39,829 bases of DNA from Syntrophales bacterium. Lineage in GTDB: Bacteria > Desulfobacterota > Syntrophia > Syntrophales > UBA4778. This document shows positions 20,252-23,020 of this stretch, piece after piece. Position 1 is the first letter of the stretch. Every line of letters begins with the position of its first letter. The stretch lies in NCBI GenBank assembly GCA_028712885.1, contig JAQTPK010000025.1:1-39829 (forward strand), in the 5' to 3' direction. The position numbers were made by a program, and so were the translations under genes. Below the pieces are notes generated by a model that was not told the DNA's origin, made no database searches, and was given only the letters and a program-made list of their open reading frames with translations.

Positions 20252-20326
20252 GGTCCCATCGTCTAGTGGTTAGGACGCTGGCCTCTCACGCCGGAAACCG
20301 GAGTTCAACTCTCCGTGGGACTACCA
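20252..20326 (+). tRNA. tRNA-Glu (CTC)
   Basis: A 75-nt cloverleaf with acceptor GGTCCCA / TGGGACT, discriminator A and encoded CCA. The D arm is GTCTAGTGGTTAGGAC, the anticodon loop CTCTCAC (anticodon CTC), and the T arm CGGAGTTCAACTCTCCG. The 3' half from 20281 on is duplicated perfectly 2.5 kb downstream, which marks it as an integration site. Confidence 0.97.
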
Positions 20327-20335
20327 AAATAAAAA
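20281..20335 (+). repeat. Left attachment-like repeat (inside tRNA-Glu)
   Basis: A 55-bp block, from the anticodon loop of tRNA-Glu through CCA into the terminator stem, is identical to 22818-22872. It has the position and size expected of a tRNA attachment core. Confidence 0.88.
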
Positions 20336-20364
20336 GGGCCGCTTCATGCGGCTCTTTTTATTTT
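20326..20364 (+). terminator. Terminator of the tRNA-Gln/tRNA-Glu unit
   Basis: AAAATAAAAAGGGCCGC pairs with GCGGCTCTTTTTATTTT around a short TTCAT loop, starting at the tRNA 3' end. The stem is nearly perfect and has its own T-rich 3' side. Confidence 0.93.
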
Positions 20365-20442
20365 GGGGTTTCTAGTTTCGAGTTTCTGGTTTCTAGTTAC
20401 TTCCAGGTAGTGTTGGACCAGAAATAAGGAAGACCTTTCACT

Positions 20443-20585
20443 CAGGCTGTCCAAAATTGCTCAGATACGAGGCCCATCCTTCGACTGCGCTCAGGACAGG
20501 CTCCGGCCCGAGGCGCGCAGCGTACTTTTTACGTACGTGAGCACCGAGGGCCAAGGGAAACGAAGTAGATGAGTGATTTTGGGCA
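20443..20585. repeat. REP-like palindromic element, copy 2
   Basis: The left arm CAGGCTGTCCAAAATTGCTC (20443-20462) faces GAGTGATTTTGGGCA (20571-20585), with the outer GCCTG missing on the right. The core has TCGACTGCGCTCAGGACAGG, shared with copy 1, and an inner palindrome GTACTTTTTACGTAC. Its right end is fused directly to a degenerate tRNA. Confidence 0.8.
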
Positions 20586-20657
20586 TCCGCGTCTAGTGGT
20601 CAGGACGCCGGCCGACCCCCGCCGGAAACCTGGGTCCAAATCCCGGAGGGATCACCA
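20582..20657 (+). pseudogene. Degenerate tRNA, tRNA-Glu-like
   Basis: The D arm GTCTAGTGGTCAGGAC, the anticodon stem CCGGC / GCCGG and a T stem CTGGG / CCCGG are kept and CCA is present. The acceptor arms GGCATCC and AGGGATC do not pair, position 33 is G instead of T, and the loop would read ACC. The 5' end is replaced by the REP-like element. It is a tRNA relic, most like tRNA-Glu. Confidence 0.8.
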
Positions 20658-20709
20658 AAGAATTACTGTGAGTTGCGAACTTTATATTATTTTTCACTGT
20701 ATGGTAATA

Positions 20710-20727
20710 TTTCAGCAATCGTTGAAA
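20710..20727. promoter_or_regulatory. Upstream operator-like palindrome O1
   Basis: TTTCAGCAATCGTTGAAA is an inverted repeat with one mismatch (TTTCAGC / GTTGAAA) around a 4-nt spacer. It is the same design as O2 and lies 76 bp away centre to centre. Confidence 0.7.
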
Positions 20728-20752
20728 ACAGCATAAATGGTGATAATTGGTC

Positions 20753-20781
20753 TTGACATTTGTAATATTTCACCCTATTGT
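20753..20781 (+). promoter_or_regulatory. Sigma-70 promoter of the AbiE-like pair
   Basis: TTGACA (20753-20758), a 17-nt spacer and TATTGT (20776-20781) form a near-consensus promoter. Transcription would begin near 20788, inside operator O2 and about 28 nt before the chosen start codon. Confidence 0.8.
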
Positions 20782-20785
20782 CAAT

Positions 20786-20803
20786 TTTCAGCGAATGCTG
20801 AAA
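20786..20803. promoter_or_regulatory. Downstream operator-like palindrome O2
   Basis: TTTCAGCGAATGCTGAAA has perfect 7-bp arms around GAAT and covers the expected transcription start. A repressor here would block initiation. Together with O1 it fits autoregulation by the winged-helix protein encoded next. Confidence 0.8.
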
Positions 20804-20815
20804 GGTTTATTTTTA

Positions 20816-21874
20816 ATGAAAAAACTTGGCAATGAAATAGAGATCCAAGCATTGGAGGCTCTCAAGACCTGCCTGAAGCGGGTTCCTTTTTTGACGGTGG
20901 AATCTGTAGAGCAAGAGCCTCGTACTAATGATGCACAGTTCGATATCCTGGCAAGAGTGCGTATCGCCCAAGAATGGCAGAATATTGCTGTGGAAGTGAA
21001 AGGGAATGGCCAGCCCAGGATAGTTCGTTCAGCCATTTTCCAGCTCCTGCGATATCGCGAAAAAAATCCCGATGCGTACTGCGTGGTTATCGCGCCTTAC
21101 ATTTCTCCACAATCAGCGGCGATATGTGCAAAGGAGGATATCGGATACATAGACCTCGCCGGCAACTGCCGGCTAACCTTTGACAAGGTATATATAGAAC
21201 AGGAAGGGAAGGCTAATCCCTTTGCCGTAAAGAGGGATTTGCGATCCCTTTATTCCCCAAAGGGCGAGCGGGTACTTCGCGTACTTCTGAACGATCCCAA
21301 AAAAGCATGGCGGGTCCAGTCTCTATCAGCAGAGGCCGTTGTAAGCCTCGGACAGGTTTCCAATGTAAAGCGCTTGCTTGAAAACCGTGAATGGCTCATA
21401 AGTACTGACGCTGGCCTGGTGCTCAACGCCCCTGATCAACTTTTGACCGAATGGTCGGAAAACTACAACTTTAGCAGGAACATAACGCGGAATTACTACA
21501 CCCTGAAAACCATGGCAGAGATCGAGGCCGATCTGGCTGAGTGCTGCATGAAAAAGGGAATCAGCTACGCCCTGACCGGTTTTTCTGCGGCGGCAAGATA
21601 CGCACCTGCTGTGCGCTACCAGCGGGCAATGGCCTATGTCGGGGAAAAAGCTGACAAGGTGACCGAGTCTCTTTCACTGAAAGAAGTTTCCAGCGGGGCC
21701 AATATGACACTCCTTTACCCTTATGACGAAGGCGTCATATACGGTTCACGATTGATTGATAGAATACAGGTGGCAATGCCGGTCCAAGTGTATCTTGATC
21801 TCTTATCGATGAAAGGCAGAGGGGAAGAAGCAGCCGCAATTTTGCTGGACGAGGTGATTAAGAAGCAATGGTAA
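20816..21874 (+). CDS. AbiEi-like antitoxin/regulator with a PD-(D/E)XK-like N-terminal domain
   Basis: 352 residues. I place the start at ATG 20816 (GAAAGG about ten bases upstream); the frame is open further up, but that region contains the promoter and O2. Residues 1-135 look like a restriction-nuclease-like fold: Asp43 in QFDILARV, Glu60-x-Lys62 in VEVKGNG and Gln76 in the next helix. After GYIDLAGN (110-117) comes a winged helix (about 148-195, GERVLRVLL...VSNVKRLLENREWL) and an AbiEi-like C-terminal domain. AbiEi antitoxins repress their own operon through operator repeats, which matches O1/O2. It overlaps the toxin gene by 7 nt. The family call is inferred from layout and partner; nuclease activity is only suggested. 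Confidence 0.75.
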   Translation: MKKLGNEIEIQALEALKTCLKRVPFLTVESVEQEPRTNDAQFDILARVRIAQEWQNIAVEVKGNGQPRIVRSAIFQLLRYREKNPDAYCVVIAPYISPQSAAICAKEDIGYIDLAGNCRLTFDKVYIEQEGKANPFAVKRDLRSLYSPKGERVLRVLLNDPKKAWRVQSLSAEAVVSLGQVSNVKRLLENREWLISTDAGLVLNAPDQLLTEWSENYNFSRNITRNYYTLKTMAEIEADLAECCMKKGISYALTGFSAAARYAPAVRYQRAMAYVGEKADKVTESLSLKEVSSGANMTLLYPYDEGVIYGSRLIDRIQVAMPVQVYLDLLSMKGRGEEAAAILLDEVIKKQW

Positions 21875-22692
21875 CCCGAAGGGATTATACTGCCGACGCG
21901 GTACAGGCAGCCAAATCCGTCCTGATTGAGCTGATGCATCTGCTTGGTGAGTACAGAGACGATATCGTCGTGATTGGAGGGTGGGTGCCGGAATTGTTAT
22001 TACCGCAGGAACCCTACCCCCATGTAGGAAGCATGGATATTGACCTTGCCCTGAACCACTTGAAGATTCAGGACGGATACAAGATGATTGAAGAACTTCT
22101 CATCTCCCGTGGGTACTATCAGGAAGAAGGCAAGCAGCCTTTCATCTTCTTCAGGGATCTTCCTGTTAAAGGACAGACCATCAAGGTGCAGGTGGATCTT
22201 TTATCAGGAGAGTATGAGGGAACTGGAAAAGGCCGCCGGCATCAGGTTGTACAAGGAATGAAAGCCCGTAAAGTACGCGGTTGTGACATTGCCTTTGACA
22301 TGGCTGAAGAGATTTCTATTGATGGAGAAATCCCTGGGGGCGGTCAAGACCGCGTTACTGTCAGGGTTGCTTCGATCGTCCCATTCATAATAATGAAAGG
22401 GATGGCATTAGACGATCGGCTGAAAGAAAAAGATGCTTGGGACATCTATTTCTGCATCCGTTCCTATCCCGGCGGGGTTGATACTTTGGCTGAGGAATTC
22501 CGTCCTCACTTATCGCACGGCTTGATTCAGGAAGGCCTTACAAAAATCGGAAAACACTTCGCCGGAATCACATCAATCGGCCCCAAATTCGTTGCAGATT
22601 TTGAGATGCCGGAAGACGCTGAAGATAGGGAACGGATTATCCGTGATGCATTTGAGCGGATAACTGCGCTTTTGGAAAAGCTGAAGGTTTGA
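21868..22692 (+). CDS. AbiEii-like nucleotidyltransferase (putative toxin)
   Basis: 274 residues with the nucleotidyltransferase signature: Gly37-Gly38 in VVIGGWVPELL, the metal pair Asp57-x-Asp59 in GSMDIDLAL, and a third acidic residue Asp110 in VQVDLL. A helical part follows with MKGMAL (176-181) and EKDAWDIY (187-194), the K-x-x-D-x-x-D motif of AbiEii/AbiGii proteins. AbiEii enzymes are toxins thought to modify RNA with nucleotides, causing growth arrest and phage resistance. The start ATG overlaps the antitoxin stop (ATGGTAA), so the pair is coupled. No other gene lies in the island. Confidence 0.82.
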   Translation: MVTRRDYTADAVQAAKSVLIELMHLLGEYRDDIVVIGGWVPELLLPQEPYPHVGSMDIDLALNHLKIQDGYKMIEELLISRGYYQEEGKQPFIFFRDLPVKGQTIKVQVDLLSGEYEGTGKGRRHQVVQGMKARKVRGCDIAFDMAEEISIDGEIPGGGQDRVTVRVASIVPFIIMKGMALDDRLKEKDAWDIYFCIRSYPGGVDTLAEEFRPHLSHGLIQEGLTKIGKHFAGITSIGPKFVADFEMPEDAEDRERIIRDAFERITALLEKLKV

Positions 22693-22695
22693 AAA

Positions 22696-22759
22696 GTGTG
22701 TGTCCTTTTCTCCAAAATCGGGGTAAAATGATTGCACAACTACCCGGGAGGACACACAC
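22696..22759. repeat. 11-bp inverted repeat after the toxin gene
   Basis: GTGTGTGTCCT (22696-22706) and AGGACACACAC (22749-22759) are exact reverse complements 42 nt apart. It starts 3 nt after the toxin stop. No T tract follows, so it may be a solo inverted-repeat element or the ends of a lost insertion rather than a terminator. Confidence 0.65.
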
Positions 22760-22817
22760 GCTTCAATAAAATAAAAAACTTACAATAAAACAGGTGACTT
22801 AGATATCTTTCCGGTTA

Positions 22818-22863
22818 GCCTCTCACGCCGGAAACCGGAGTTCAACTCTCCGTGGGACTACCA
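22818..22863 (+). pseudogene. tRNA-Glu 3' fragment
   Basis: The fragment begins at the anticodon loop, contains the T arm, 3' acceptor strand and CCA, and lacks the 5' half. It is the displaced end of the tRNA-Glu target after integration. It has no upstream tRNA part and cannot function. Confidence 0.9.
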
Positions 22864-22872
22864 AAATAAAAA
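22818..22872 (+). repeat. Right attachment-like repeat
   Basis: Identical over 55 bp to 20281-20335. The matching ends on both sides at unrelated sequence (CTG versus TTA upstream), which defines the repeat borders. Confidence 0.88.
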
Positions 22873-22901
22873 AGGCTGCTTTCGGCAGCCTTTTCTATTT
22901 T
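22863..22901 (+). terminator. Terminator at the displaced tRNA-Glu end
   Basis: AAGGCTGC TTT CGGCAGCCTT with A-rich and T-rich flanks. Its stem differs from the terminator at 20326-20364, although the first bases are shared; one of them came with the island. A degenerate GAGTTTCGAG repeat follows both terminators (20366-20400 and 22903-22937); 22938-23020 holds nothing I recognise. Confidence 0.85.
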
Positions 22902-23020
22902 GGAGTTCCGAGTTTCGAGTCTCGGGTTTCGAGTTGCCCCAGGAAAGAGAACAGGAGTCTCAGACCAGAAAGTCAAAAATAGCGACTGCCTCCCTTGAAT
23001 GTTCTTTGTAGTCGCACGTT

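What the first reader, a model, noticed from the sequence alone, without database searches (positions are those of the whole stretch)
20816..21874. PD-(D/E)XK-like signature in the AbiEi-like partner
Asp43, Glu60-x-Lys62 and Gln76 are spaced as in restriction-like nucleases, ahead of a winged helix. A regulator with a possible nuclease domain, paired with a nucleotidyltransferase, would be a different kind of defence unit from the classical AbiE system.
Basis: inference. Interest (0 to 1): 0.62.

Follow-up and report, generated by a model that had tools for sequence, protein, structure and literature searches.

The report
Toxin's repressor with nuclease-like domain
A bacterial gene pair that looks like a self-controlled toxin and antidote has an antidote protein carrying an extra front domain shaped like a DNA-cutting enzyme, its cutting residues kept in most relatives; I found no paper in the library I could search that describes this domain, and whether it cuts anything has not been tested.

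Summary
P0001 (window 20816-21874, 352 aa) has D43, E60-x-K62 and Q76 where stated. They are more than chance: D43, E60 and K62 rank 4th to 6th of 123 nuclease-domain columns in 67 diverse homologues, and 42 of 67 keep the full triad. Single N-domains match PD-(D/E)XK Pfam models (HSDR_N 3e-5, NucS_C 6e-4, Mrr_cat 2e-3), while reversed sequences do not. An AlphaFold2 model (pLDDT 89) puts residues 1-126 on PD-(D/E)XK nucleases (PaqCI, NucS, EndoMS, Can2/Cdn1; Z 8-11), 133-216 on winged helices and 231-352 on nucleotidyltransferases without the catalytic DxD. The partner P0002 is a MenT/AbiEii-type nucleotidyltransferase with its catalytic residues intact. Two palindromes (TTTCARC-N4-GYTGAAA) bracket the promoter. 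They occur nowhere else in the 2.9-Mb genome and are kept as a pair in 17 of 20 relatives. The best reading is a known toxin-antitoxin pair (COG4861-COG4849, AbiE/MenAT-like) whose autorepressing antitoxin carries a nuclease-fold domain, probably catalytic in most lineages and dispensable in some. I found no paper in the held library describing that domain. It is a new variant of a known kind. Nuclease activity, defence and toxicity are untested.

The parts
20816..21874 (+). Antitoxin/repressor-like protein P0001 (COG4861/PF09952), 352 aa plus stop, ATG start (ORF listing also offers an upstream TTG at 20747)
   Evidence: the ATG is preferred because the operator lies 30 bp upstream of it in most close relatives
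20816..21193 (+). N-terminal PD-(D/E)XK nuclease-fold domain (residues 1-126); D43, E60, K62, Q76, plus the D113-xx-G116-N117 motif
   Evidence: AlphaFold2 model plus VIA-align Z 8-11 to nucleases; Pfam scan of homologue N-domains with reversed control; conservation
21212..21463 (+). Winged-helix domain (about residues 133-216)
   Evidence: MarR_2 in 13 of 32 homologues, best 9e-10; structural matches to CAP, MarR and ArsR types
21506..21871 (+). C-terminal nucleotidyltransferase-fold domain without DxD (residues 231-352); PF09952 covers 203-348
   Evidence: MenT1 Z 11.9, TM1012 10.5, ANT(2'')-Ia 10.4; AbiEi_2 E 5e-18; DxD absent in 67 homologues, D/E328 and R335 conserved
21868..22692 (+). 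Partner P0002: MenT/AbiEii-type nucleotidyltransferase, predicted toxin, 274 aa; overlaps P0001 by 7 nt (ATGGTAA)
   Evidence: G37G38, S55-x-D57-x-D59, D110, K177, R184, K188-D189, D192 conserved; model matches MenT1 Z 13.9, JHP933 12.2, MenT3 11.9, MenT4 11.1
20710..20727 (.). Distal operator palindrome TTTCAGCAATCGTTGAAA
20786..20803 (.). Proximal operator palindrome TTTCAGCGAATGCTGAAA, between promoter and start codon
20753..20781 (+). Sigma70-like promoter TTGACA-17-TATTGT between the two operators
   Evidence: consensus match only; the number found in the region is no more than chance, but the position fits
20252..20326 (+). tRNA-Glu(CTC), apparent integration site on the left
   Evidence: ARAGORN
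22818..22935 (+). 118-bp direct repeat of the tRNA-Glu 3' half plus terminator (87%; tRNA part identical), right end of a 2.5-kb insert holding only this gene pair
   Evidence: the same right-end sequence next to a tRNA-Glu 3' fragment in L004

Best explanation
The pair is an AbiE/MenAT-like toxin-antitoxin operon of the COG4861-COG4849 type. P0002 is a nucleotidyltransferase toxin (shown: intact catalytic residues and fold; inferred: that it modifies tRNA or another RNA, as MenT toxins do). P0001 is its antitoxin and autorepressor. Its winged helix binds the two palindromes that bracket the promoter (inferred; the paired sites are shown). Its C-terminal domain, a nucleotidyltransferase fold without the catalytic DxD, silences the toxin (inferred from AbiEi, where this domain alone suffices), perhaps by promoting phosphorylation of S55. 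At its N-terminus it carries a PD-(D/E)XK-fold domain with an intact metal-binding and catalytic site (shown by sequence, conservation and model). This domain probably is, or recently was, a metal-dependent nuclease. The most likely role is to act on invading DNA while tethered to a DNA-binding antitoxin, so that the engaged antitoxin frees the toxin as a back-up (inferred, the weakest step). The domain's catalysis is not required for toxin control, because some lineages lost the site and kept the toxin. The unit is carried on a small tRNA-Glu-targeted island.
For: Fold. Sequence-level PD-(D/E)XK matches with reversed control. Conservation across Desulfobacterota, Chloroflexi and proteobacterial plasmids. 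Toxin identity. Operators: 17 of 20 loci with both sites against 0.005 expected, only two sites in the 2.93-Mb genome. Antitoxin kept where the toxin gene is broken (G365, G140, G210, G122). AbiEi C-terminal domain sufficient for antitoxicity and winged-helix autorepression: PMC3985639; AbiEi C-terminal domain known to match nucleotidyltransferases 5KQJ and 5UVD: PMC7319586, the same structures matched here. Mobility.
Against: No biochemical or phage data. The triad is lost or changed in 25 of 67 homologues sampled, some with intact toxins (the K62V group L024, L025, L027). A nuclease fused to a repressor sitting on its own promoter must be silent or gated there; no gating element was found. 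No cognate methylase lies in the 2.5-kb unit. The most conserved residues of the domain (D113, G116, N117) are not the classical catalytic ones and are unexplained.
Confidence: 0.7

Rival explanations
1. The nuclease-fold domain is non-catalytic: it serves as a DNA-binding, dimerisation or sensing module of an ordinary toxin-antitoxin repressor.
For: The triad is degenerate in several lineages that keep the fold, the D113-xx-GN motif and often the toxin. Dedicated operators exist, so DNA binding matters. No gating of a nuclease on the cell's own promoter is visible.
Against: D43, E60 and K62 are the most conserved residues of the domain after D113/G116/N117, with conservative changes (E to D, K to R) in several. 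A purely structural domain has no reason to keep exactly the catalytic set across phyla.
Confidence: 0.35
2. The unit is a stand-alone defence nuclease (restriction-like), with the nucleotidyltransferase as a second effector and no toxin-antitoxin relation.
For: Nuclease fold and motif; presence on mobile islands and beside defence genes such as DUF4297-HerA on one plasmid, near a DEAD-type helicase on others and an ATPase with a DUF4143-like region in L004 (by eye).
Against: AbiEi-like C-terminal domain, overlapping-gene operon order, autoregulatory operators, and loss of the toxin with retention of the antitoxin all fit a toxin-antitoxin pair. No modification enzyme protects the genome.
Confidence: 0.12
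3. The motif is a chance likeness and the N-terminus is some other fold.
For: P0001 alone scores no PD-(D/E)XK Pfam family above threshold.
Against: Homologues do, reversed controls do not; the high-confidence model matches several separate nuclease families at Z 8-11.
Confidence: 0.03

Closest known systems
COG4861-COG4849 (DUF1814) pairs, PF09952 AbiEi_2, including M. tuberculosis Rv0837c-Rv0836c (MenAT2)
   Same: Same family: PF09952 hit, gene order regulator then nucleotidyltransferase, reported as a widespread linked pair (PMC3985639, PMC3968373)
   Different: The held literature calls COG4861 only a putative transcriptional regulator; the PD-(D/E)XK domain and the paired operators were not found described
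Classical AbiE: AbiEi (COG5340) - AbiEii (COG2253)
   Same: Winged helix plus nucleotidyltransferase-like C-terminal antitoxin domain, two inverted repeats at the promoter, overlapping nucleotidyltransferase toxin gene
   Different: AbiEi starts with its winged helix and has no nuclease-fold domain; operator sequence and spacing differ; sequence similarity not detected
MenAT1/MenAT3/MenAT4 of M. tuberculosis
   Same: P0002 model matches MenT1, MenT3, MenT4; Ser/Thr before the DxD is kept as in phosphorylated MenT
   Different: MenA1, MenA3 and MenA4 antitoxins have no nuclease-fold domain that I know of
NucS/EndoMS, PaqCI, Can2/Cdn1 PD-(D/E)XK nucleases
   Same: Fold and D...ExK...Q arrangement of residues 1-126
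   Different: Different partner domains (no nucleotidyltransferase-like domain, no toxin partner); those are proven nucleases, this is not

Membership tests
PF09952 / COG4861 antitoxin family | Profile match above curated cut-off | tested here: met
   66.2 bits against cut-off 21; 30 of 32 close homologues match
PF09952 / COG4861 antitoxin family | Linked downstream nucleotidyltransferase gene | tested here: met
   7-nt overlap; partner found in most homologous loci
AbiE-type toxin-antitoxin system | Winged-helix repressor with inverted-repeat operators at its own promoter | tested here: met
   Sequence and model only; binding not tested
AbiE-type toxin-antitoxin system | Toxicity of the nucleotidyltransferase and neutralisation by the antitoxin | not testable with these tools
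   Supported only indirectly by retention of the antitoxin where the toxin is broken
AbiE-type toxin-antitoxin system | AbiEi protein is COG5340: winged helix at the N-terminus followed directly by the antitoxin domain | tested here: not met
   P0001 has an added N-terminal nuclease-fold domain and matches COG4861/PF09952 instead
AbiEii/MenT (DUF1814) nucleotidyltransferase | GG/G-S-x-D-x-D, K and R...KD motifs in a polymerase-beta-type fold | tested here: met
   Pfam AbiEii itself below cut-off (17.1 against 22.5 bits)
PD-(D/E)XK nuclease superfamily | Alpha-beta core with D and (D/E)xK on the central strands | tested here: met
PD-(D/E)XK nuclease superfamily | Nuclease activity | not testable with these tools
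   needs purified protein
PADLOC AbiEi defence model | Profile match of the regulator | tested here: not met
   P0001 matches no PADLOC model; P0002 only weakly AbiEii, E 0.0027

The most novel reading that the evidence does not exclude
The antitoxin itself is a working nuclease: one protein that represses its operon, holds a nucleotidyltransferase toxin silent and cuts invading nucleic acid, so that sensing, first-line attack and release of the abortive toxin are joined in a two-gene unit found across several phyla.
Probability: 0.3. Interest if true: 0.78.

Novelty: new variant of a known kind. Interest (0 to 1): 0.52.

Why it matters
COG4861 antitoxins are widespread and one is in M. tuberculosis, yet they are labelled only as transcriptional regulators. 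A conserved nuclease-fold domain would change how they are tested: it offers three point mutants that could separate repression, toxin control and nucleic-acid cleavage. It may also explain how such a system senses phage or plasmid DNA, which is open for AbiE-like systems. The exact operator sequence makes the autoregulation testable at once.

Tried and rejected
Chance motif: rejected by conservation rank, fold and reversed-sequence control. Direct sequence search of P0001 against the PDB, NCBIfam and PADLOC gave nothing. No homologue in annotated phage records; seven IMG/VR contigs carry relatives, some degenerate. Profile comparison of the C-terminal domain with P0002 gave no sequence-level relation, so a common origin of antitoxin domain and toxin rests on fold alone. 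I looked for lone intact toxins: the apparent cases G128 and G125 lie at contig ends, and G094 is a shortened toxin-like frame. Literature searches for AbiEi with nuclease, restriction-fold or PDDEXK terms found no description; two key surveys (PD-(D/E)XK 2012, nucleotidyltransferases 2009) were not held, so an earlier mention cannot be excluded.

Full report
What was claimed and what is there. Translation confirms each residue. The downstream gene, 21868-22692, overlaps by seven bases. Pfam finds AbiEi_2 (PF09952) at residues 203-348 only (E 5e-18), leaving the first 200 residues unlabelled; the partner scores AbiEii below cut-off. NCBIfam and PADLOC do not recognise P0001.

Is the signature more than chance? 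Homologues were gathered from the phylum (42 of 395 genomes), from relatives, from plasmids (88 records), from IMG/VR contigs and from a Chloroflexi genome. In a 67-sequence alignment the most conserved N-domain columns are N117, G116 and D113, then D43 (82%), E60 (78%) and K62 (73%); Q76 is 51%. 42 of 67 keep D, E or D, and K together. Eleven of twelve plasmid copies keep it. Losses are lineage-wise: three of four members of one group have K62V and the fourth has lost the triad, and some distant members have lost everything.

Fold. Scanning homologue N-domains singly against Pfam gave 17 families up to E 10, of which 10 are PD-(D/E)XK types: HSDR_N 3e-5, NucS_C 6e-4 in 7 of 21, Mrr_cat 2e-3, PDDEXK_9, Hjc and others. 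The same sequences reversed gave one chance family. A profile of the N-domain aligned weakly with EndoMS (E 0.2) and NucS (E 0.3), placing E60/K62 on EndoMS E179/K181, which I recall as catalytic residues of that enzyme. An AlphaFold2 model of P0001 from ten sequences has mean pLDDT 88.9 (pTM 0.66, so domain placement is uncertain). Residues 1-126 align with PaqCI (Z 10.7), NucS (10.6), AF1548 (10.2), EndoMS (10.1) and Cdn1/Can2 (8.3-9.9); 133-216 with winged-helix regulators; 231-352 with MenT1 (11.9), TM1012 (10.5) and ANT(2'')-Ia (10.4). Foldseek's best hits are EndoMS and NucS, E 4e-4 to 8e-4. Middling Z values are common, so weight is put on the agreement of several separate nuclease families with the sequence evidence.

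The C-terminal domain. It has the nucleotidyltransferase fold but no DxD in any of 67 homologues; an acidic residue at 328 and R335 are kept. [quoted passage not shown] Sequence profiles of this domain and of P0002 do not detectably match.

The partner. P0002 keeps G37G38, S/T55, D57, D59, D110, K177, R184, K188-D189 and D192 in essentially all relatives. Its model (pLDDT 88) matches MenT1 (13.9), JHP933 (12.2), MenT3 (11.9) and MenT4 (11.1). S55 lies two residues before D57 of the DxD, as does the phosphoacceptor S78 of MenT3/TglT (PMC7205606); conservation of that Ser/Thr in COG4849 was noted before (PMC11375011).

Control elements. Two palindromes, TTTCAGCAATCGTTGAAA (20710-20727) and TTTCAGCGAATGCTGAAA (20786-20803), bracket a TTGACA-17-TATTGT promoter-like site. 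The degenerate pattern occurs nowhere else in the 2.93-Mb genome. Both sites are present in 17 of 20 related loci, from Desulfobacterota and proteobacterial plasmids (the Chloroflexi locus has one), against 0.005 expected from shuffles. More distant subfamilies have their own palindromes just upstream of the start. This resembles the two inverted repeats bound by AbiEi (PMC3985639).

Toxin-antitoxin behaviour in evolution. In four of the closest Desulfobacterota loci the antitoxin is intact while the toxin gene is missing, truncated or frameshifted (G365, G140, G210, G122). Assembly error cannot be excluded for the frameshifts. No clear case of the reverse was found.

Mobility. The pair fills a 2.5-kb stretch between tRNA-Glu and a 118-bp repeat of its 3' half and terminator. 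In a related genome (L004, Syntrophaceae UBA4054, 92% identical P0001) the pair lies in a larger island that ends in a tRNA-Glu 3' fragment preceded by the same sequence. No integrase is present in the window's insert.

Mechanism and doubt. The best-supported account is an AbiE/MenAT-like toxin-antitoxin operon with an autorepressing antitoxin. What is new is the N-terminal nuclease fold. Its selective conservation argues for catalysis in most lineages; its loss in some that keep the toxin shows it is not needed for toxin control. How a nuclease could sit on its own promoter without harm is not explained. The statement that the domain guards against foreign DNA and frees the toxin is inference.

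Known or new. The pair COG4861-COG4849 was named in 2014 (PMC3985639), and Rv0837c-Rv0836c is its M. tuberculosis member (PMC3968373). I found no held paper describing the PD-(D/E)XK domain, but two surveys that might mention it were not available. I file it as a new variant of a known kind.

Noticed in passing
window 20252-22935: The two-gene unit is the only content of a 2.5-kb insert between tRNA-Glu and a 118-bp repeat of its 3' half; it has no integrase, and the same right end recurs in L004 next to a larger island.
   Followed up: partly
window 20590-20659: A second, degenerate tRNA-Glu-like copy (pieces 78-92% alike) not called by ARAGORN, perhaps a remnant of an older integration.
   Followed up: partly
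window 22689-22766: Inverted repeat GTGTGTCC...GGACACAC right after the predicted toxin gene; nature unknown.
   Followed up: no
window 20816-21871, residues 113-117: D113-xx-G116-N117 is kept in 66 of 67 homologues, even where the nuclease triad is lost; its role is unexplained.
   Followed up: partly
L055:2971-4182: The homologue on this IMG/VR contig has a 44-residue insertion in the C-terminal domain that its near-identical relatives L052 and L054 lack.
   Followed up: no
L096:6932-8035: Cupriavidus plasmid copy with D43 changed to N and no partner toxin detected by profile.
   Followed up: no
L011:1414-1932: A 173-aa frame matches the end of P0001 and the start of P0002, as if the two genes were fused by a deletion.
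   Followed up: no
L094, L098: On two plasmids the pair lies a few kilobases from partition or replication genes (parAB, repABC), fitting a plasmid-maintenance role.
   Followed up: no
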